From an uncultured Paraprevotella sp. (GTDB taxonomy: Bacteria > Bacteroidota > Bacteroidia > Bacteroidales > Bacteroidaceae), in the NCBI GenBank assembly GCA_944321345.1, contig CALUKY010000004.1, forward strand, positions 62,001 through 126,000: a stretch of DNA of 64,000 bases, written 5' to 3'. The stretch's first letter is position 1. Every line of letters begins with the position of its first letter. Made by a program: the position numbers and the translations under genes. Below the pieces are notes generated by a model. That model was not told the DNA's origin. It saw nothing but the letters and a program-made list of their open reading frames with translations, and did not search any database. Of the stretch, positions 33,743 through 45,004 are shown piece by piece.

Positions 33743-33877
33743 GTGCCCGAAGTGACAAATTGTCTGATTTTCTGAAATTTTGACAGATGTAAAGCTGTTC
33801 GTACTGATGGATTTGTCTGCATTTAGGCTTATTTGTAAGCATTCGGCAAACTACAGGTATTAAACTTTTATATATAA

Positions 33878-33921
33878 CAATAGCGACTGACACTATGAAC
33901 TTAATAGTACAGTCGCTATTG
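33878..33921 (+). terminator. strong hairpin with T-rich tail, no gene assigned (region 33644-34005)
   Basis: CAATAGCGACTG pairs exactly with CAGTCGCTATTG, loop of 20 bases, followed by TTTTGTTG. It has the form of an intrinsic terminator on the plus strand, yet no coding gene precedes it on that strand. It could end an unrecognised small RNA. The rest of the 362-base gap upstream of clpB holds only the clpB promoter element. Confidence 0.6.
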
Positions 33922-34005
33922 TTTTGTTGAACCTGTTGTTACAGCTTATATTAGTTACCAGATTCATCCTTTTGTTTTGTCAACACACATTCCGGATGTT
34001 TCAAC

Positions 34006-34108
34006 TGTCTTAGCCTGAAAATGGTTGACTATTTTTACGTTAAACCTGAAGAATATAAACCTCTTAATTTTATCTCTATAATTTGTTGCCATAAAGTTTC
34101 CTATTACT
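34006..34108. repeat. IS3-type terminal sequence, left copy
   Basis: 103 bases starting TGTCTTAGCCTGAAAATGG, nearly the same as 36388-36490 and in the same orientation, with substitutions clustered at positions 46-60. Weaker similarity goes on to about 34130. It is the outer end of the IS whose decayed transposase lies at 36569-37060; here no transposase sequence follows. An open frame starting inside it (34021) is not considered a gene. Confidence 0.75.
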
Positions 34109-34307
34109 CTCAAGATGACAAAGCCTATGGAATTTCATTGGTACCTTTTATGGAGGAATTTATACTTACAGATACACAACTTTTGAACAAAATCGGAACG
34201 AATACTATTGCTATTATTATAATAGTAAACAAGAGCATCCGTCATTATCATTGCGATATGACATGTTTATATTATTATTTTGCTATTCGATTGTTTATTA
34301 AGTTTTT

Positions 34308-34685
34308 CTATATGCCTATAATTCTTCTGAATACCAGGGAATTAGCTATACTAAAGTTCTCATCTCCTACTACAAGATTATAAACATCTATTGCCCCCTT
34401 TTTCATAATATACGGAATTCTATCATGAAACAAAGCCTTGCATCTTTGACCATCAACGATTATTATGTCTCCGAGATGTGGCATAGTGTCAAAATACATG
34501 ACACTATAACTCTTGCCACGCATTTTTTCTATACTGAGGATTAAATACCCACGACCAACACCTCTATTTTCTATGATGGACGGATCTTTGAATACTCTAC
34601 ATACATACTTCCCATACCAAGGCTTATCTTTAAAGATTGCTTTTCTGTATCGACCTTGGGGATATTCAAATACAAATTTTTCCAT
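34308..34685 (-). CDS. unrecognised protein, second gene of an IS-bounded cassette
   Basis: 125 residues, AT-rich coding sequence, no signal peptide or membrane segment. Starts MEKFVFEYPQGRYRKAIFKD. There is a hydrophobic strand-rich centre (GRGYLILSIEKMRGKSYSVM) and a GDIIIVDGQRCKALFHDRIPY segment. No family is recognised. It follows the 547-residue gene on the same strand after 55 bases and probably shares its transcript. It lies between the two IS end copies. Confidence 0.6.
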   Translation of the reverse strand: MEKFVFEYPQGRYRKAIFKDKPWYGKYVCRVFKDPSIIENRGVGRGYLILSIEKMRGKSYSVMYFDTMPHLGDIIIVDGQRCKALFHDRIPYIMKKGAIDVYNLVVGDENFSIANSLVFRRIIGI

Positions 34686-34740
34686 ATAAGTTTTTTGTAG
34701 ATAATAAACGTAGAATTAAAGTAATGAAGTCTTGTATTAA

Positions 34741-36384
34741 TTAATCGATGTTCCATTCTGCATCTGGATCATCTTCAAAAGCCGCTCTATAGCCTTCGTT
34801 TTCGTAATACCTTCTTTCTTCTTCTTCCCAATACCTTTTTTCTTCTTCACGTCTTCTTTCTTCGCATTCTTCTTCGTATGCATCAATCTGCTCTTGCATA
34901 TCATTCATAGCAGATGCCACAACGTTTAGTTGTTTAAGATATTTTGAGTCATCACTTCTTTCTTCTCTGATAGCATCAAATACATCCGAATTAACATATA
35001 GATTACCTCTGTTAATAAGTGCCACCAGATATTTTGGATCATTGCCAACGATTTCCTCAAAGGTCTCACCTTCATGTTTAGTCTCACATGATTCAAAATA
35101 GTTTGAAGCAAAATCAGACAGATAAAGATAATCAGAAGCATCAGAAATCTCTTCAAATTCAAAATGAAGATCATGCGCTAACCACATTTTGTCTTTTTCT
35201 TTTCCAAACACGCTGTGCTTCACAAAATCTTTAAATTGATTTACGTGTATATAGCCAGAACTCATATATTTTATAAGAGTTTTAGGATCAGACATTTTCA
35301 ACCAGGAAATATTTCTTCCTGCATTTTCTCCTTCTCTAATAATATACAGTGGTCCTGCATACAAACCTGTTCTGTAACCCTCCTTGTACCAATAAGGTTC
35401 CTTAATCACATTTACAGGAAGGTATTTGCGTATACCAGTAACACAGTTAACAGAAATCATGTTATCTGGTTTTTTCATTTGTGGACGATATGGAATGCCC
35501 TGATTCTTTTCTTTATCAAATTTATCGAATGTATAAATTGTAGAGTTCTTAAATACCAATTTTACGAAACCATTAATATATCCTCCATTGCATTCTCTTT
35601 CTCCACAATGGATAATGGTTCTTTTTCTATTCACATCAAACAAACCATATCTTGGTTCATATACGTCGTCAATAAGAATGGACGGAAAACAATGGTCAAA
35701 ACCAGCATATTCAACCCACTCATCATACTCCTCCCTGCTTCTCAGGAGAAGATATTGAGAACCAATTAGGACATTTGTGAATGTGGATGTTTCTCCTTTA
35801 AAAGAAAAAACCAAATCTCCTCTATAATTAGGACAAAGGATTCCAGAGACAAAATGCTTTTTGTCATCATCTTCTGGTATTTCATCTTCATCGTAATATT
35901 CATAATAATCAACTTCTCCTTCTGTATACCCAGCATTGAATAATATTTTATCTGTAACTTGCAACTTGTTATTCCAAAACCAAGAGTCATACCTATCGGT
36001 ATCAATTTCTTCGTTAGTGTTAATTTGCAAGATTCTCTTCAAACTAATATTGGTAAGAGTAATATCCTTTTGCTTGTTATACTTATTCAAATCCAAACCA
36101 CAATAGCAGTTAGAATCAAGCTCAATAGATATAAAGTTACCTTTTTTATCTATTGCATAAGCAGCTGTGTTGTAAGAACTACGAACTTCATTGAAATATT
36201 CTTGATTTTCATTTAGATATACAAGGCAAATCCCATTTACAAAAAATCCAAACGCAATTTCAGTTTCTTGATTTTCATCGAATTCGTCATAAGGATCTGA
36301 TTCTTCAATAGATTGTATTATCTGACTTTTGATTGTAGATATTTGTTCGTCTGACAAGACATCTGAATATTTTAAAATTTCCAT
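34741..36384 (-). CDS. unrecognised large acidic protein, first gene of an IS-bounded cassette
   Basis: 547 residues, AT-rich, no signal peptide or membrane helix. Very acidic throughout, with runs such as YYEYYDEDEIPEDDDKK (about 160-176) and a C-terminal charged helix about 500-535 (EEECEERRREEEKRYWEEEE). The middle contains strand-rich WG- or beta-propeller-like text: FVSGILCPNYRGDLVFSF, YGLFDVNRKRTIIHCGEREC. No known domain is recognised. The start codon is three bases from an IS end (36388), so the native upstream region was displaced. Base composition and IS edges point to horizontal origin; function is unknown. Confidence 0.7.
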   Translation of the reverse strand: MEILKYSDVLSDEQISTIKSQIIQSIEESDPYDEFDENQETEIAFGFFVNGICLVYLNENQEYFNEVRSSYNTAAYAIDKKGNFISIELDSNCYCGLDLNKYNKQKDITLTNISLKRILQINTNEEIDTDRYDSWFWNNKLQVTDKILFNAGYTEGEVDYYEYYDEDEIPEDDDKKHFVSGILCPNYRGDLVFSFKGETSTFTNVLIGSQYLLLRSREEYDEWVEYAGFDHCFPSILIDDVYEPRYGLFDVNRKRTIIHCGERECNGGYINGFVKLVFKNSTIYTFDKFDKEKNQGIPYRPQMKKPDNMISVNCVTGIRKYLPVNVIKEPYWYKEGYRTGLYAGPLYIIREGENAGRNISWLKMSDPKTLIKYMSSGYIHVNQFKDFVKHSVFGKEKDKMWLAHDLHFEFEEISDASDYLYLSDFASNYFESCETKHEGETFEEIVGNDPKYLVALINRGNLYVNSDVFDAIREERSDDSKYLKQLNVVASAMNDMQEQIDAYEEECEERRREEEKRYWEEEERRYYENEGYRAAFEDDPDAEWNID

Positions 36385-36387
36385 ATT

Positions 36388-37060
36388 TGTCTTAGCCTAA
36401 AAAAGGTTGACTATTTTTACGTTAAACCTGAAGTCTGTTGACTTCTTTATTTTATCCCTATAGTTTGTTGCCATAAAGTTTCCTATTACTATGAGGAAAT
36501 GACAAACTCAGTAGAGTTGCCACCGATGCTTTATAGGACAACTTATACCCCCAAAGATAGGCATTTATTTAAAATGATGTTCTCTGTTTGTACATTTTTC
36601 TTACAATATTTCTATAACAGGTCCATCTGTTCTTTATTTCGTCTGTATGAGCCGCTGCTTCCTGGGGTGTCATCATATTGATATTCATGTGGGGGCGTGC
36701 GGTATTATAGAAAAGTACAGTTTTCTCTACAGCCTCTTCACAACCTCCTTGATATCATAAAAGCATCTTACTTTAAAGTAGTTCATTCTTCATTGTATTA
36801 TTGATCCTTTATGTTGTTCATTACTTATGAGGGAAATTTCCTTCATACTGATAGTTATATCATATTCTTTCAGTAGAGTTGTGTATTCTTACAGGTATAT
36901 TGGCATTACCTTGTCTGAGTGATGTATGAGTTCTTTTCTGGAAGTATCATTCACACACTTAAGGGCCATACGCAATGCATGAATATAAAGTGTCTCACCG
37001 AATGCTCATCCAACATTTCGGTTACGGTCGATAGTGAGAAGCAAGCCTTAATAAACTTTA
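36388..37060 (-). mobile_element. decayed IS3-family element, truncated at its 5' side
   Basis: Outer end TGTCTTAGCC at 36388 (TG...CA ends are typical of IS3), then a noncoding end of about 180 bases and the transposase remnant. The other end is not found; degeneration runs up to the mtnN promoter region. Confidence 0.65.
36569..37060 (-). pseudogene. IS3-family transposase OrfB remnant
   Basis: The minus strand reads, across frameshifts and stops: HALRMALKCVNDTSRKEL, IHHSDK (second catalytic Asp region), EYTTLLKEYDITISM, a damaged region where the catalytic Glu should be, NYFKVRCFYDIKEV. The last clean piece is EEAVEKTVLFYNTARPHMNI, NMMTPQEAAAHTDEIKNRW ... KMYKQRTSF with the natural stop at 36569. 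At least three stops or frame changes. Inactive. Confidence 0.8.
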
Positions 37061-38319: not shown

Positions 38320-38358
38320 TCCGCCGGTGCGGTTTGCTGTCTGAGTGAAAATGAATAG

Positions 38359-38390
38359 AAAGAGGTCTGCTCCAGCGGCAGGCCTCTTTT
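38359..38390 (+). terminator. terminator-like hairpin between luxS and jetA
   Basis: AAAGAGGTCTGC / GCAGGCCTCTTT stem with a short loop, followed by TCCCG rather than a long T run. Only 33 bases separate it from the jetA start, so the jet genes either have a promoter inside this region or depend on read-through. Confidence 0.65.
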
Positions 38391-38423: not shown

Positions 38424-39887
38424 ATGGCATTGAACGACAGTATTTTGTCTGAAATCATCTCCACGTCGCCCAGTGTGGAACTGTTGCGTCTGCGTAACCG
38501 GGAGCTGGTGTTGCTGTTTCTGTATCGCACATTCTATCATAAGCCCGATCCGGTGGCCTATGAGCACCTTTGCGTGCAGCTGTCCGATTACCTGTGCGAG
38601 GAGCATCTGGACCAGGACGAGGAGAGTGGCATTTCGGTGTTCGACACCTACGACGAGAAGGCGCGCAAGTATATCATGCGCTGGACCGATAAGGGATTTT
38701 TGCGGAACTATCAGGAAGAAACGGGCGAGGTGTTTTACGAACTTTCGTCGTATGCCAGCAAGACGCTCGACTGGCTTCTGAGTCTGAAGAAGGAGGATTT
38801 TGTGGGCACCGAGTCCAAATTCATGAATCTTTTCTCCCAGATGAAAGAACTGGTGGAGTTTACCAATGAAGACAAGGATGAGCGTATCCGTATTCTCGAA
38901 GCCCGAAAGCAGGAGATAGAACATGAGATACAGACCATCCGTGCCGGAGGAGATGCCCGGGTGTTTGAGGAATATCAGATTCGCCCGCGCTTCCGGCAGA
39001 TCACCCAGTCGGCCAAAGACCTGCTTTCCGACTTTAAGGAGGTGGAGGAGAACTTCAAGAATATCACCAAGAGCATCTATCAGAAGCATGCCGAAGGGGG
39101 ATATACCAAAGGCGACATTCTGGGATTCACGTTCGATGCTCTGGAAGATTTGCAGAACAGTCCGCAGGGACGCAGCTTCTATGCTTTCTGGGACTTCCTG
39201 CTCAGTCCTTCCCTGCAAGAGGAGTGGGACGAACTGGTGAGCGGACTCTTTGAAACGCTCGACCATAAAAGCATTCAGGAACGTGACCAGTTTCTGCGCA
39301 ACATGAAGCAGTATCTTTATGCCGCCGGAAAGAAAGTATATCAGGCCAACGACAAGATGGCCGAGAAACTGAGCAAGATCATTTGCGAGCAGGAAGCGCC
39401 GAAACAGGTGGCTGCTCGCAAACTGATTCAGGATATTCAGGCCACTCTGCTGGAACTGGTTCAGAAGAACTGCAAGCCCGAGGTTTCCCTGTCCGTGGAG
39501 ATGTTTCCCGAAATCAGGATGCCTGCGGAGCGCAAGCTCACTCTGGAGCGCAACACCGAAGTGGTGTACCGGCAGGTTCTTGAGGTGGCGGCCTCCGATA
39601 TTACCCAGGCTGACTATGCCGACGCCCTCTTTGCTACGCATACGGTGGACCGCGGCATTCTGAAACAGCGCGTCCTTACGGCCCTGAAACGCAAGAAACA
39701 GGTATCGCTGGCCGAAGTGATCGAGCGCAACGGCGGACTGGAAAAAGGACTGGCCGAGCTGTTCGGCTATATCGGTCTGCTGTCAGAGTTCCGATACCAT
39801 GTGCATACCGAAAAGACGGTGGATGTGCCGTTCAACACCGCCGAGAACAAAATGATCCGAGTACCCGAAATAATTATTGTCAGATAA
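38424..39887 (+). CDS. jetA: JetA / MksF-like kleisin-family subunit (DUF3375)
   Basis: 487 residues matching the DUF3375 pattern of type I Wadjet JetA: an N-terminal winged-helix region (SVELLRLRNRELVLLFLYRTF), GFLRNYQEETGEVFYELSSYASKTLDWLLSL, the conserved VGTESKFMNLFSQMKELVE near 131, a coiled coil (about 155-175, RIRILEARKQEIEHEI), and a C-terminal domain. JetA is the MukF/MksF-like kleisin that links the SMC heads. In Wadjet the complex recognises closed circular DNA by loop extrusion and JetD cuts it. Here jetD is not present nearby. Followed by jetB after 3 bases. The location between luxS and recA is core chromosome, not a defence island. Confidence 0.88.
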   Translation: MALNDSILSEIISTSPSVELLRLRNRELVLLFLYRTFYHKPDPVAYEHLCVQLSDYLCEEHLDQDEESGISVFDTYDEKARKYIMRWTDKGFLRNYQEETGEVFYELSSYASKTLDWLLSLKKEDFVGTESKFMNLFSQMKELVEFTNEDKDERIRILEARKQEIEHEIQTIRAGGDARVFEEYQIRPRFRQITQSAKDLLSDFKEVEENFKNITKSIYQKHAEGGYTKGDILGFTFDALEDLQNSPQGRSFYAFWDFLLSPSLQEEWDELVSGLFETLDHKSIQERDQFLRNMKQYLYAAGKKVYQANDKMAEKLSKIICEQEAPKQVAARKLIQDIQATLLELVQKNCKPEVSLSVEMFPEIRMPAERKLTLERNTEVVYRQVLEVAASDITQADYADALFATHTVDRGILKQRVLTALKRKKQVSLAEVIERNGGLEKGLAELFGYIGLLSEFRYHVHTEKTVDVPFNTAENKMIRVPEIIIVR

Positions 39888-39890
39888 ACT

Positions 39891-40463
39891 ATGATGGAGA
39901 ATAAAAGAGCGCCTTATGCAAGAGCTGTTGTCTGCCTGCTGAAAGGAATCGTAAATGCCTCAGACCGCGTCTGGGAGGATGTGTTGCACTATCAGACCGA
40001 GATACAGAAATACCTGATGCAGATCGGTATCGAACTGATTGTGAAACGTGAGGAAGGTTTTGCCTATATCCGTCAGACCACGGACGAGGAAGGCAATACC
40101 GTGGGACTGGTTCCCCGTAAGCAGCTGGGGTTTGAGATTTCCGTGATTCTGGTGATTCTGCGTCAGGTTCTGGAAGATTTTGACAATAATCTGGATGAGC
40201 TTTATGCCACAGAGTGCTATCTCACGGCTGAGGATATCAAGGAACGGGTGGAGCTATTCCTGCCCGAGAAGTTCAACCGGGTGCGTCTGCTCAACGAGCT
40301 GGATGCCTATATTGCCCGCATCGTGCAGTTGGGCTTTCTGGTGGAGAAGCGCAACGAAAACCGGGTGTCTTATCAGATACACCGTATCATCAAGGAGAAA
40401 GTGACTTTGGATCAGCTGTTGGAATTTAAGCAAGAATTGGAAAAGTATGTTGAGTCTGTTTAA
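39891..40463 (+). CDS. jetB: JetB / MksE-like subunit (DUF4194)
   Basis: 190 residues, DUF4194 family, the MukE/MksE-like partner that binds the kleisin. Two winged-helix-like parts: EIQKYLMQIGIELIVKREEG (about 37-56) and ERVELFLPEKFNRVRLLNEL...IVQLGFLVEKR (about 118-155). The C-terminus overlaps the start of jetC by 17 bases, implying translational coupling and fixed stoichiometry. Confidence 0.88.
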   Translation: MMENKRAPYARAVVCLLKGIVNASDRVWEDVLHYQTEIQKYLMQIGIELIVKREEGFAYIRQTTDEEGNTVGLVPRKQLGFEISVILVILRQVLEDFDNNLDELYATECYLTAEDIKERVELFLPEKFNRVRLLNELDAYIARIVQLGFLVEKRNENRVSYQIHRIIKEKVTLDQLLEFKQELEKYVESV

Positions 40464-43400
40464 TACACGTTCCGAAATGTCGGGTTTCCGGTTGCAGTAT
40501 ATGGAAATCTACAATTGGGGAACGTTTCACGAAAAGATATTCAGAATGGCACCCGAGGGAAACAATGCCCTGCTTACCGGTGCCAATGCCTCCGGAAAGA
40601 GTACGCTGATTGATGCGCTGCTCACCCTGATGGTGCCCGCCAAGAAAGACCGTTTCTATAATCAGTCGTCGGGGGTGGAGAAAAAGGGAAACCGTACGGA
40701 GGAAACTTATGTGTTGGGGCACTATGGAAATATTCAGAAAGACGGGGAGAATGCGGTGACCACCCAGGCTCTGCGCGACCAGAGTACTTATTCGGTGTTG
40801 CTGGCCAGCTTCATGAATACGGACGATCAGCATGTGGTTACTGTGTTTCAGGTGCGCTGGTTCTCTTCGGGAGAACTGCGCCGCACTTTCGGCTTGGCGC
40901 ATTGTCCGCTGGAGATTCAGCGTGACTTCCAGCCGTTCGATGGGCGCGGCAACTGGCGCAAGCGTCTGGAAGCGGCCTATAAGGGACCACGCACGATGGT
41001 GGAGTTCTTTGACGGTCCGGTGGGATATGCCGAGCGCATGACCCAGTTGCTCGGCATGCGTTCGGTCAAGGCGCTGAGTCTGTTCAACCAGATTGTGGGT
41101 GTCAAGGTGCTCGACGATCTGGATGACTTTATCCGCACGAATATGCTGGAGGAACTGGATGCCGAGGGGCAGTATATCCAGCTGAAGGACAGTTTTACCA
41201 CGCTGATCGAGGCCAAGAACAACATCGAGAAGGCCAGTATGCAGATCGAGATGCTTCGTCCCATTGCGGCGCTGGCCGATAAGATCGGGCAGGCCGACGA
41301 CCGCCTGAAACAGTTGAACATGGACAAGGACACGGCGGTGTACTGGTTTGCCCGTCAGCTTATCAACATGGGAGAGGAGCGCCTGTCCTGGGCCGAGAAA
41401 AGCAAGACACAACTTCAGAAAGAGTTGGAGAAGCTGCGTGCCAAGGAAGAGAAACTTCGTCAGGAAGAGCGCAGTCTGGCCATCGCCATCGAACAGGATG
41501 AAGTGGGCCGTAAGGTGAAGGAACTGGAGGATGAGGCCCGTCAGTTGGCCGAACTCCGTGACCAGCGCATGAAGAAGATGGACGAATACAACCAGTTAGC
41601 CGAACAGTTGTCTTTGAAAACCAATCCGCAGAAAGACACGTTCCTGAAACAGCAGGAAGAGGCGGCCGTGCGGTGTGAGCGTATCCGCGACGAGCAGGAG
41701 GCTTGCATACGTCAGACCATCGCTCTGGAGAATGAGCAGAATGAGTTGGCCAAGGAACTGAAAGAACAGGTGGAATATGTGGAGCTGATCCGCAAGAACA
41801 AAAACAATATTCCGGCCAAGGAGATGGAAATCCGCGACGCGCTGCTCCGCCATACGGGAGCCACCAAGGAGGAATTGCCTTTCGTCGGTGAGCTGATCCG
41901 GGTGCGGGATGATGAGAAAGAGTGGGAGGTGGCTATCGAGAAGATCCTGCATCACTTTGCCCTTCATCTGATGGTGCCGGAGAAATATTATCATCAGGTG
42001 GCTGAGTACCTGAACGAAAACAATGTGGGAGGCCGCATCCTGTTCTTCCGTTATGTGCCTTATTGCGGACTGAACAATGCTTCGCTCTATGACTGGCCGG
42101 AGGATACGCTCATCTCCAAGATCGAGATCAAGGACACTACGGAATATGAGGAGTGGGTGCGTGATACGATTCTGGAAAAATTCAACTATACCTGTGTGCC
42201 GTCGCTCGAAGATTTTGAGCGGTGCAAGGAGAAGGCCGTGACCCGTGAAGGATTGATCAAGACTTCGGGTGACCGCCATGAGAAGGACGACCGTCCGCAC
42301 GTGCTGAAGCGCGAAAACTATGTGCTGGGTTGGGAGAATCAGGGGAAACTGCGCCTGCTGCAACAGGAAATCCGCCAGATGCAGGAACAGGAAAACGAGA
42401 AGCGCGGACAGCAGGTGGAACTGGAGAAGAAACGCCGTGCTTTGGAACAACAGCAGGATGCTTTGCGCAAGCTGACAGAACTCTTTACCGACTATGAGCT
42501 GATGGATTGGGCGGACTATGCCCAGCAGTACCAGAACAAGATGGACGGTCTGGAAGCGCTGCGCCGGGAGAGTGATCATGTGAAGACGCTGCACGAGCAG
42601 CTGGAAAAGGTGCGCGAGGAACTGAAACAGGTGTCGCAAATGGCGATAGAGGCCAAGACCAAAGAGATATTCGGACAGGAGAATCTGATTGAACAGACCC
42701 AGACCGAGCTGAGTGAAAACCAGAAAGTCATCGCTTCCATAAAATCGTTGCTCTTTACGGATTTTGAAAAAGAATATGCTTATCTTTGCGAACTGACCTA
42801 CGACCAGCTGAAACAGGAACGCGGCGAGTTCCAGAAAAAGAACGAGCGTGCCCGCGGACGTCTGGCGGGCGAAAAGCGTGGTTATGAGGATGAGGCCAAG
42901 ATTCTGATTGCGGCCTTCAAGCATCCCGACGAGGAAATCACCGAGCGTTTTAAGGACTGGCGTTCGGATGTGGATGCCTTGCCCGATGCCAACCATATTG
43001 AGCTGATCGAGGCCTATACGGCTATGCTGGCCCGTCTGGAAAAGGAGAATCTGCCGAAGTATGAAAAGCAGTTTGACGGATATATCCAGAAAACACTGAT
43101 CGACAAGGTGGGCGAGTTCCGCATGTTCTTTGTCAGCTGGGTGGATTCCATCAAGGAGAACATTGCCATGCTTAACGAGTCGCTCAAGGGAATTGAGTAC
43201 CGCAAGGCGCCGTCTACCTATATCCAGCTGGTGACCAATGTACGGATCAATGAAGAGGTGCGTGCCTTCCGCAAGATGATGGAGGAGGCCATACCCGATG
43301 TGAAGCGCATCAACGCTTCGCCCGAGGGCCGTCGTGATCATTTCTACGATCATATCGAACCGCTGATGCGCCGCCTGGAGGATGAAGACTGGCGCGACAA

Positions 43401-43848
43401 GGTGATGGATGCCCGCGGATGGTTTACCTACAAGGCCGAGGAGTTCAACCAGAGCACCGGCCGCAAGGAAACGACTTATGAGAATATGGGTCATCTGTCG
43501 GGTGGTGAGAAAGCGCAGCTTACCTATACGATTCTGGGTTCGGCCATCGCTTATCAGTTCGGACTGACCAAGAGCGGGGCACAGGTCAACTCTTTCCGCT
43601 TCATTGCGATTGACGAGGCGTTCAAGGCGCAGGACGAAACCAAGGCCCGCTATCTGATCAACCTCTGCAAACAGCTGCACCTGCAACTGCTTGTGGTGAC
43701 CCCGAACGACAATATTCACATTGTGGAGAACGACATCTCCTATGTATATTTCACCGAGCGTAAGGAAGAGAAAACCTCATGGCTGTATAGCATGCCGATA
43801 GAACAGTGGGAACAGAAAAGAATAATACATTATTGTAAACCGATATAA
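40447..43848 (+). CDS. jetC: JetC / MksB-like SMC ATPase (COG4913)
   Basis: 1133 residues, SMC-like ATPase. Walker A GANASGKSTLIDALL at 45-59. Two long coiled-coil arms at about 290-480 and 640-800 surround a hinge-like globular region about 480-620 (ELPFVGELIRVRDDEKEWEVAI, LILFFRYVPY-like). The signature LSGGEKAQLTYTILG lies near 1017 and Walker B FRFIAIDEAFKAQDE near 1050. The ATPase extrudes DNA loops in Wadjet/MksBEF complexes. All ATP-binding motifs are intact, so the complex should be active. A long open frame on the opposite strand here is a codon-bias shadow. Ends four bases before yfcE. Confidence 0.92.
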   Translation: MLSLFNTRSEMSGFRLQYMEIYNWGTFHEKIFRMAPEGNNALLTGANASGKSTLIDALLTLMVPAKKDRFYNQSSGVEKKGNRTEETYVLGHYGNIQKDGENAVTTQALRDQSTYSVLLASFMNTDDQHVVTVFQVRWFSSGELRRTFGLAHCPLEIQRDFQPFDGRGNWRKRLEAAYKGPRTMVEFFDGPVGYAERMTQLLGMRSVKALSLFNQIVGVKVLDDLDDFIRTNMLEELDAEGQYIQLKDSFTTLIEAKNNIEKASMQIEMLRPIAALADKIGQADDRLKQLNMDKDTAVYWFARQLINMGEERLSWAEKSKTQLQKELEKLRAKEEKLRQEERSLAIAIEQDEVGRKVKELEDEARQLAELRDQRMKKMDEYNQLAEQLSLKTNPQKDTFLKQQEEAAVRCERIRDEQEACIRQTIALENEQNELAKELKEQVEYVELIRKNKNNIPAKEMEIRDALLRHTGATKEELPFVGELIRVRDDEKEWEVAIEKILHHFALHLMVPEKYYHQVAEYLNENNVGGRILFFRYVPYCGLNNASLYDWPEDTLISKIEIKDTTEYEEWVRDTILEKFNYTCVPSLEDFERCKEKAVTREGLIKTSGDRHEKDDRPHVLKRENYVLGWENQGKLRLLQQEIRQMQEQENEKRGQQVELEKKRRALEQQQDALRKLTELFTDYELMDWADYAQQYQNKMDGLEALRRESDHVKTLHEQLEKVREELKQVSQMAIEAKTKEIFGQENLIEQTQTELSENQKVIASIKSLLFTDFEKEYAYLCELTYDQLKQERGEFQKKNERARGRLAGEKRGYEDEAKILIAAFKHPDEEITERFKDWRSDVDALPDANHIELIEAYTAMLARLEKENLPKYEKQFDGYIQKTLIDKVGEFRMFFVSWVDSIKENIAMLNESLKGIEYRKAPSTYIQLVTNVRINEEVRAFRKMMEEAIPDVKRINASPEGRRDHFYDHIEPLMRRLEDEDWRDKVMDARGWFTYKAEEFNQSTGRKETTYENMGHLSGGEKAQLTYTILGSAIAYQFGLTKSGAQVNSFRFIAIDEAFKAQDETKARYLINLCKQLHLQLLVVTPNDNIHIVENDISYVYFTERKEEKTSWLYSMPIEQWEQKRIIHYCKPI

Positions 43849-43852
43849 AAGT

Positions 43853-44395
43853 ATGAGATATTTAATTGTTTCAGATATTCATGGCTCGCTGCCTGCTTTG
43901 GACAAGGTGCTGGCTTTCTACGACGAGAAACAGTGTGACATGCTGTGCATTCTGGGTGATATATTGAATTACGGTCCGCGCAACGGGCTGCCCGAAGGAC
44001 TGGACCCCAAAGGCATTGCCGAGCGCCTGAACGCACGGGCCGACCGTATTGTGGCGGTGCGTGGCAACTGCGATTCGGAAGTGGACCAGATGCTGCTGGA
44101 TTTCCCGGTGCTGGCCGACTATGCGCTGCTGGTGGACCGTGGCCGCCGTTTCTTCCTGACACACGGACATGTGTACTCCGAAAGCAATATGCCGAAGGGC
44201 CGTCCCGAAGTCTTTATGTACGGACACACCCATCTCTGGAAATTAGAGAAAACCGAGGACGGAACAGTGGTGTGCAACACCGGTTCCATCACCTTCCCGA
44301 AAGGAGGCAACCCGCCTACCTTCGCCCTGCTCGACGACCAGGTGCTTTCCATCTATCATCTGGACGGAACCCTGCTCAAGAGCCTTTCGCTATAA
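43853..44395 (+). CDS. yfcE: YfcE/MJ0936-family metallophosphodiesterase
   Basis: 180 residues, very like E. coli YfcE: SDIHGSLPA (DxH metal site), CILGDILNYGPRNGLPEG, VRGNCDSEVDQMLLDFP, FLTHGH and MYGHTHL. YfcE is a Mn-dependent phosphodiesterase with in vitro activity on artificial substrates; its natural role is not established. It begins four bases after jetC, so it is almost certainly co-transcribed with jetABC. Whether it takes any part in the SMC complex is unknown; the strong match to the housekeeping enzyme argues it is simply a neighbour. Confidence 0.92.
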   Translation: MRYLIVSDIHGSLPALDKVLAFYDEKQCDMLCILGDILNYGPRNGLPEGLDPKGIAERLNARADRIVAVRGNCDSEVDQMLLDFPVLADYALLVDRGRRFFLTHGHVYSESNMPKGRPEVFMYGHTHLWKLEKTEDGTVVCNTGSITFPKGGNPPTFALLDDQVLSIYHLDGTLLKSLSL

Positions 44396-44422
44396 TATAA
44401 ATAAGGAATAGAACGGAAATAT

Positions 44423-45004
44423 ATGGAAACAACAAAATGGAGTGAACACGTGATTCTGGTGCAGGCCGACTATGTGGACCGCGTGGCATTTGATCTGAGC
44501 GTAAACTACGAGCGTATGTTGGGCCGTCGCATCCCCAAGGCCGATCTGGCACACTGGCTGGTATGCGCCGCACTGGACGGAGGCGTGACTCCCGGAGCCA
44601 ATGAGATACAGGTGGTGCTGATTCACAGTAAGGAGAAGAAGCAACTGGACAATTTCCTGCCGGCTTCCTTCAGTCAGGAACTCGACGGAAAAGGATTTGA
44701 TGACCCGCATCTGGGCACTTTCTCCATCAGTTCGCTGCAAGTGGAGAATCTGGTATCGGCATCGGAGTTCTTTGCCCAGGCCTTTGAAACCCTGGCCGAC
44801 GCCAAGGAAGTGAAGAATCTGATTGTGGTGCCCGATCCCGAAGCCTCGGTCTACGATCTGATGGCCATCATGGATCATGTGGAAGGCGAGAAGAATGTTA
44901 CCCTGCTGACCATGGAACCGCTGAACAGCAAGCGTTTCAAGAATGACATATTGGGCTATTCACTCACGAGCGCTTTAGGCGTTCGTGGCGATGAGTTCAA
45001 ATAA
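44423..45004 (+). CDS. conserved Bacteroidales hypothetical protein
   Basis: 193 residues, cytosolic, acidic, without signal or membrane segment. Begins METTKWSEHVILVQADYVDRVAFDLSVNYERMLGRRIPKADLAHWL; a second half has LIVVPDPEASVYDLMAIMDHV. I recall a DUF6621-type family with this layout, but am not certain. It follows yfcE by 27 bases and is the last gene of the run that starts at jetA. Function unknown. Confidence 0.7.
   Translation: METTKWSEHVILVQADYVDRVAFDLSVNYERMLGRRIPKADLAHWLVCAALDGGVTPGANEIQVVLIHSKEKKQLDNFLPASFSQELDGKGFDDPHLGTFSISSLQVENLVSASEFFAQAFETLADAKEVKNLIVVPDPEASVYDLMAIMDHVEGEKNVTLLTMEPLNSKRFKNDILGYSLTSALGVRGDEFK

What the first reader, a model, noticed from the sequence alone, without database searches (positions are those of the whole stretch)
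38424..45004. JetABC (type I Wadjet-like SMC complex) without JetD, in a housekeeping operon with yfcE
Seen: DUF3375, DUF4194 and COG4913-type SMC genes with 3-base and overlapping junctions, intact Walker A, signature and Walker B motifs, then a YfcE phosphodiesterase four bases later and a conserved hypothetical gene after 27. Known: type I Wadjet needs JetD (DUF3322/DUF2220, toprim nuclease) to cleave plasmids; JetD is absent here. Inference: either a chromosome-maintenance MksBEF-like condensin has been kept without its nuclease, or another nuclease acts with it (encoded elsewhere, or, less likely, the metallophosphodiesterase). The setting between luxS and recA is core genome, unlike usual defence islands.
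Basis: partly seen in the sequence, partly recalled or inferred. Interest (0 to 1): 0.75.

Follow-up and report, generated by a model that had tools for sequence, protein, structure and literature searches.

The report
Wadjet-type DNA motor lacking its nuclease
This gut bacterium carries an intact three-gene DNA-looping machine that resembles a plasmid-destroying defence system but lacks the gene for its DNA-cutting part, and relatives show that this cutter-less form is old, kept by selection and not tied to the neighbouring genes.

Summary
This is not a recent accident. Nine genomes of the window's family, in two genera, carry jetABC without jetD beside it; they form one fully supported clade among systems that have jetD. 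Open frames, ATPase motifs and dN/dS of 0.00-0.03 against the sister genome show selection for function. JetD is absent from five of five clade genomes searched whole. The housekeeping reading fails: the luxS/yfcE setting is shared only by this genome and its sister, and no flanking gene is shared by more than three of the nine loci. It is an accessory trio, intact in 2 of the genus's 18 genomes. ScpB is absent from 60 of 60 genomes of the order and no relative has a full-scoring SMC (0 of 31). Best reading: a nuclease-free, MksBEF-like loop extruder derived from Wadjet by an old loss of jetD. A similar origin is proposed in print for Pseudomonas MksBEF, so it is a new variant of a known kind.

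The parts
38424..39887 (+). jetA (kleisin-like, DUF3375), 487 aa, intact
   Evidence: dN/dS 0.010 against the sister genome
39891..40463 (+). jetB (KITE/MukE-like, DUF4194), 190 aa, intact
   Evidence: no nonsynonymous difference from the sister genome; no match in the PDB sequences at E 0.001
40447..43848 (+). jetC (SMC-type ATPase), 1133 aa; Walker A, signature and Walker B present
   Evidence: matches solved JetC 8as8, E 1e-50; dN/dS 0.034
38358..38390 (+). terminator-like 14-pair hairpin between luxS and jetA (its U-run lies inside the 3' arm)
   Evidence: z -2.8 for the 104-nt stretch; not listed by the consensus scan
43853..44395 (+). yfcE metallophosphodiesterase; neighbour, not shown to be part of the system
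   Evidence: beside jetABC in 2 of 9 D-less clade loci
44423..45004 (+). DUF6621 gene; old neighbour of the saccharopine dehydrogenase-like gene and recA in the genus, not part of the system

Best explanation
jetABC here is a nuclease-free SMC complex. It descends from a type I Wadjet system that lost jetD once, before the nine D-less copies in two genera diverged (direction of the change inferred from the tree). JetC (ATPase), JetA (kleisin) and JetB (KITE) should still assemble as a dimeric loop extruder (inferred from their families). With no JetD, extrusion cannot end in plasmid cleavage by that enzyme, so the complex most likely acts by folding or holding DNA, as is reported for Pseudomonas MksBEF. 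Shown: intact genes, purifying selection, one clade, no JetD in the genomes searched, patchy spread. Inferred: loop extrusion, no cleavage. Open: whether the target is the chromosome or incoming circular DNA.
For: No JetD_C in the window's genome nor in four further clade genomes of 97-100% completeness (G327, G236, G363, G335), while the same search finds it in the D+ control G430. The nine D-less loci form one clade, support 100/100, in 100% of 200 bootstrap trees, among D+ systems (five of them also). dN/dS between the window and its sister genome: jetA 0.010, jetB 0, jetC 0.034; six neighbour genes give 0 to 0.0225. Positions invariant in D+ outgroup rows are changed in at least one D-less row about as often as in at least one D+ relative, six rows each (JetA 10 vs 17 of 51; JetB 9 vs 12 of 30; JetC 35 vs 36 of 178). 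Other copies do decay: a congener keeps only a jetA fragment of the D+ lineage. ScpB 0 of 60 genomes of the order, SMC over cut-off 0 of 31 relatives. PMC10586767 (passages and section 7 read) proposes that P. [quoted passage not shown]
Against: The clade is rare (9 of 399 family genomes sampled; intact in 2 of 18 of the genus), so it cannot be a general condensin of these bacteria. One clade genome (G899) also has a complete D+ system whose JetD might act in trans. One clade locus (G335) has a PD-(D/E)XK_9 protein on the same strand 62 bases before jetA. jetC's dN/dS is slightly above that of the six neighbours, and JetC has more changed cells at outgroup-invariant positions in the D-less than in the D+ rows (133 vs 109; JetA 48 vs 53, JetB 38 vs 48). 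Between more distant members dN/dS reaches 0.14 with saturated dS. Four clade genomes (G860, G877, G899, G923) were not searched whole for JetD. MukBEF and Wadjet types II/III were not searched. PMC10123090 (passages) describes Pseudomonas operons that do carry mksG, so the nuclease-free status of P. aeruginosa MksBEF rests on the review. No experiment or structure was available.
Confidence: 0.62

Rival explanations
1. JetABC still works as a plasmid or phage DNA sensor, but with a different nuclease encoded elsewhere, or beside it in some lineages.
For: A distant D-less operon in the same order (G057, L044) has a 95-aa HNH-like protein with a hydrophobic C-terminus between jetA and jetB, gaps of 6, 7 and 1 bases. 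In the window's clade, G335 has a PD-(D/E)XK_9 protein 62 bases before jetA. D-less cores arose several times: the label needs 5 changes on the JetC tree, at least 4 forced.
Against: No flanking gene is shared by more than 3 of the 9 clade loci in all-against-all blastp (some stretches are short on one side). The HNH matches are weak (E 7e-4, under Pfam's cut-off) and seen in one genome, the only one held of its family. The PD-(D/E)XK_9 protein has no PADLOC match.
Confidence: 0.2
2. Nuclease-free immunity: JetABC extrudes and compacts incoming circular DNA and silences or destabilises it without cutting. This is one form of the best explanation, so the two confidences overlap.
For: Patchy, accessory distribution as in defence systems; three close copies share an edge 64 bases before jetA with different DNA upstream. 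The likeness to Smc5/6 is recalled.
Against: No direct evidence; the flank genes scanned are mostly ordinary metabolic or translation genes by Pfam, and 3 flank proteins given to PADLOC had no match.
Confidence: 0.3
3. A decaying relic of a Wadjet system.
For: jetD is gone; broken relatives exist (jetA fragment in G383, truncated jetC in G799, split jetC and jetD in G503, split jetB in G602).
Against: Three intact frames in nine genomes of two genera and dN/dS 0.00-0.03 against the sister genome.
Confidence: 0.04
4. JetD is present but missed, by an assembly gap or strong divergence.
For: The window's genome is 91% complete.
Against: Four more clade genomes, 97-100% complete, also lack it. tblastn with 21 JetD proteins or pieces on the window slice and ten D-less loci gave nothing under E 0.01; blastp gave no JetD in the four clade loci fetched later.
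Confidence: 0.05
5. The YfcE metallophosphodiesterase is the nuclease partner.
For: Four bases after jetC in the window.
Against: Beside jetABC in 2 of 9 clade loci only, both of the sister pair; it is an ordinary PRK09453/YfcE equivalog.
Confidence: 0.02

Closest known systems
Type I Wadjet (JetABCD / MksFEBG)
   Same: JetA, JetB and JetC families, gene order and overlaps; the nearest relatives outside the clade are D+ type I operons
   Different: no JetD beside it or, by profile, in the genome
Pseudomonas aeruginosa MksBEF
   Different: JetB scores far higher for DUF4194 (116 bits) than for MksE (37 bits, over its cut-off); here the D-less clade lies among Bacteroidia D+ systems, in an order without ScpB in 60 of 60 genomes sampled
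MukBEF and Smc-ScpAB condensins
   Same: SMC-kleisin-KITE plan (PMC10512200 passages)
   Different: sequence families differ (SMC profile 45.8 bits against a cut-off of 567); accessory, not universal in its hosts

Membership tests
Type I Wadjet | JetA (DUF3375), JetB (DUF4194) and JetC (SMC) in one operon-like run | tested here: met
Type I Wadjet | JetD nuclease (DUF3322/DUF2220) in the operon | tested here: not met
Type I Wadjet | cleaves and restricts circular plasmids | not testable with these tools
   needs an experiment
Type I Wadjet | IFDR motif at the N-terminus of JetB that contacts JetD (PMC10586767 section 7) | tested here: inconclusive
   not seen in the D+ or D- JetB rows of the class, so it tells nothing (read by eye)
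MksBEF-like condensin (nuclease-free) | intact SMC, kleisin and KITE genes without a nuclease gene | tested here: met
MksBEF-like condensin (nuclease-free) | MksE-type KITE (PF21980) as best family | tested here: not met
   over its cut-off at 36.9 bits, but DUF4194 scores 116.4
MksBEF-like condensin (nuclease-free) | role in chromosome organisation or segregation | not testable with these tools
   needs Hi-C or segregation assays

The most novel reading that the evidence does not exclude
Bacteria of this family have turned a plasmid-cutting Wadjet into a nuclease-free loop extruder that acts as a portable condensin or as a silencer of incoming circular DNA, in hosts that appear to lack Smc-ScpAB; the D-less and D+ clades are a natural experiment on the switch between immunity and chromosome care.
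Probability: 0.4. Interest if true: 0.75.

Novelty: new variant of a known kind. Interest (0 to 1): 0.52.

Why it matters
It has been proposed that MukBEF and MksBEF descend from Wadjet, MksBEF by loss of the nuclease (PMC10586767, passages and section 7). Here that step can be placed on a tree, with D+ and D- systems in one bacterial family and even in one genome (G899). PMC10197239 (passages read) reports no homologue of known condensins in two Bacteroidetes species, although a weak chromosome-arm signal is seen in one of them; a nuclease-free JetABC in a few relatives makes it testable whether such a complex can fold a chromosome in this group.

Tried and rejected
Housekeeping operon with luxS and yfcE: rejected after the congener loci. 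Joint arrival of pnp-luxS with jetABC from outside: considered because the window's PNP and LuxS differ from those of congeners, dropped because congeners differ almost as much among themselves (median identity PNP 59 vs 67%, LuxS 79 vs 83%). G+C of jetA, jetB and jetC (0.52, 0.48, 0.53) is close to that of clpB, recA and yfcE (0.53, 0.52, 0.55), so composition gives no sign of recent arrival.

JetB IFDR motif as a test for loss of JetD contact: no use, since the D+ relatives lack it too. A first count suggested looser conservation around JetC residues 400-650 in the D-less clade; the controlled count did not bear this out (9 vs 7 of 37 positions). Bacteroides-type promoter pattern: 8 matches in the window against 2 expected, none before jetA. 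Six other clade loci (L033, L082, L088, L035, L036, L084) show TAnnTTTG shortly before jetA in the sequences printed, read by eye only.

The genome-contig scan with JetB gave one locus, Candidatus Paraprevotella stercoravium. Plasmids: 14 of 72,556 records with a JetC relative, none at 60% identity or more; phages: 1 of 50,697; the phage record has no annotation and only its open frames were listed. PDB sequences: 4 for JetC, none for JetB.

Literature: the searches listed no paper on a D-less JetABC in Bacteroidota; these are listings, one search shows 25 of 22,628 and 20 of 161 papers, and most subscription papers are not held. Passages were read in PMC10123090, PMC10586767 (section 7 in full), PMC10197239, PMC10512200, PMC7083940 and PMC12647877. 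The 2011 Mks paper is not held; the 2018 Wadjet paper was not looked up.
Full report
What is there. jetA, jetB and jetC match DUF3375, DUF4194 and SMC-type ATPase families and PADLOC's type I Jet models with E-values from 5e-61 to 0; jetC matches solved JetC chains (8as8, E 1e-50), jetB none at E 0.001. The gene after jetC is a PRK09453/YfcE phosphodiesterase, the next is Pfam DUF6621. The genus is Paraprevotella by inference: the sister genome G327, of the same genus, has a 39,269-base contig like that of Candidatus Paraprevotella stercoravium CALUIU010000029.1, with the same gene identities. That the family is Bacteroidaceae and the order Bacteroidales is recalled from the taxonomy in use.

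JetD. The JetD_C profile PF09983 gives no match in the window's genome. In an order sample of 198 genomes JetA is over its cut-off in 10 and JetD in 5; four of those five JetD genes sit directly behind jetC. A search of 14 chosen genomes found JetD in the D+ control G430 and in 0 of the other 13, among them four members of the window's clade at 97-100% completeness. tblastn with 21 JetD proteins or pieces shows no remnant in the window slice and ten D-less loci (16 matches up to E 1, best E 0.015, inside jetC). The four clade loci fetched later show no JetD by blastp; their genomes were not searched whole.

One old loss, and others. In the larger family sample JetA is over cut-off in 19 of 399 genomes, 20 loci. 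By reading the loci: 9 have jetABC without jetD, 9 have jetABCD, 1 is cut by a contig end (G906), 1 is a jetA fragment (G383). The nine D-less loci form one clade with 100/100 support in a tree of joined JetA+JetB+JetC, 24 rows, beside two D+ groups; five of them were also one clade in a JetC tree of 30 rows from the class. In that wider tree the D-less label needs 5 changes, at least 4 forced by well-supported branches; loss rather than gain of jetD is inferred from its presence in the deep groups, always behind jetC. The other D-less loci with whole jetABC are G078, G182, G057, G493 and G815. Several of these sit on long branches and their exact place is unsure.

Kept by selection. Between the window and its sister genome dN/dS is 0.010 for jetA, 0 for jetB and 0.034 for jetC; the six neighbour genes give 0 to 0.0225 (recA 0.0065), so jetC is slightly above them. 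Between G363 and G335 jetA gives 0.030 and jetB 0.046, with dS of 2.5 and 1.4, and jetC could not be computed; between the window and G236 jetA and jetB give 0.14 and 0.11 with saturated dS; D+ pairs give 0.015 to 0.10. Walker A and LSGGE are present in 9 of 9 clade JetC proteins; the Walker B D and E are invariant in the nine rows, five of which are D-less. Positions invariant in six D+ outgroup rows (five for JetB) are changed in at least one of six D-less rows in 10 of 51 (JetA), 9 of 30 (JetB) and 35 of 178 (JetC), and in at least one of six D+ relatives in 17, 12 and 36; counted by cells the D-less rows have fewer changes in JetA and JetB (48 vs 53, 38 vs 48) and more in JetC (133 vs 109). 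In contrast, a congener, G383, keeps only a 181-aa jetA piece, 93% like JetA of D+ systems, with no jetB, jetC or jetD in its 18-kb stretch, and G799 and G503 have broken jetC.

The setting. luxS is in 18 of 18 genomes of the genus; in 13 of 13 fetched congener loci it stands beside the nucleosidase gene and not beside jetABC or yfcE. In 9 of 12 fetched congener stretches DUF6621 precedes the saccharopine dehydrogenase-like gene and recA (of the other three, L070 and L075 are cut by contig ends, L073 is a true exception); in 7 of 12 the clpB-like gene lies on the other side, without luxS, jetABC or yfcE between, though L069 has other open frames there. So the arrangement in the window is, in this sample, private to this genome and its sister. 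A terminator-like hairpin lies between luxS and jetA (38358-38390), though the consensus scan did not list it. Elsewhere in the clade jetABC sits near RF3, a GNAT gene and a MutS-like gene (G236), RNase R (G363), a PD-(D/E)XK_9 protein and superoxide dismutase (G335), a sulfatase-type gene (G877) or a GntR regulator and a phosphodiesterase-like gene (G899). All-against-all blastp of the flanks of the nine loci finds no gene shared by more than three loci: the GNAT gene in G236, G860 and G923. Three close copies share an edge 64 bases before jetA. This is an accessory trio found in different places, not a core operon.

Why condensin-like. ScpB was found in 0 of 60 genomes of the order (controls: 11 of 14 ring) and SMC over its cut-off in 0 of 31 relatives (controls: 10 of 14); 31 of 31 have matches far under the cut-off, and the best in the window's genome, 45.8 bits against a cut-off of 567, is this JetC. 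MukBEF was not searched. PMC10197239 (passages read) reports no homologue of known condensins in two Bacteroidetes species. PMC10586767 (passages and section 7 read) describes JetABC as the sensor and JetD as the effector, and proposes that P. [quoted passage not shown] PMC10123090 (passages) shows that some Pseudomonas operons keep mksG. The JetB here scores best for DUF4194, not MksE, so it is a separate case of a proposed kind. Against a general chromosome role speaks its rarity. I therefore commit to a nuclease-free loop extruder and leave the target open between chromosome and incoming DNA. The confidences of the best reading and of the silencing rival overlap, since silencing is one form of nuclease-free action.

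Other nucleases. YfcE is beside jetABC in 2 of 9 clade loci and is ordinary. In G335 a PD-(D/E)XK_9 protein ends 62 bases before jetA on the same strand; it has no PADLOC match and is not seen beside the other eight. In a distant D-less operon (G057) a 95-aa HNH-like protein lies between jetA and jetB; this is weak but is the best hint that JetABC can change its nuclease.

Noticed in passing
L044:8039-8813 (G057:C25): D-less jetABC operon with a 159-aa unknown and a 95-aa HNH-like protein with a hydrophobic C-terminus between jetA and jetB; possible replacement nuclease. A DUF433 gene follows jetC.
   Followed up: partly
L036:2-994 (G335:C28): PD-(D/E)XK_9 protein on the same strand, ending 62 bases before jetA of a D-less clade member; not seen beside the other eight clade loci.
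   Followed up: partly
L060:8534-10839 (G493:C8): D-less jetABC with PIN_2, DUF4253 and DUF5615 genes between jetB and jetC (toxin-antitoxin-like by recalled families).
   Followed up: partly
L085 and L086 (G899): One genome carries both a D-less jetABC and a complete jetABCD.
   Followed up: partly
window 33808-37036: 33% G+C segment with a 547-aa protein of no clear family; the sister genome has a different gene there. Looks like a recent insertion spot beside the clpB-like gene.
   Followed up: partly
L037:8500-9045 (G383): jetA fragment 93% like JetA of D+ systems, with no other jet gene in the 18-kb stretch: relic of a lost Wadjet in the same genus.
   Followed up: yes
L065:5477-6059 (G602:C193): jetB split into two frames in an otherwise complete jetABCD.
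   Followed up: no
L028:14769-15797 (G327): Sister genome has an extra 342-aa open frame between the saccharopine dehydrogenase-like gene and recA that the window lacks.
   Followed up: no
L103 (MT835499.1): Unannotated 'Bacteriophage sp.' record with a JetC-like frame of about 1137 aa; may be a bacterial contig.
   Followed up: no
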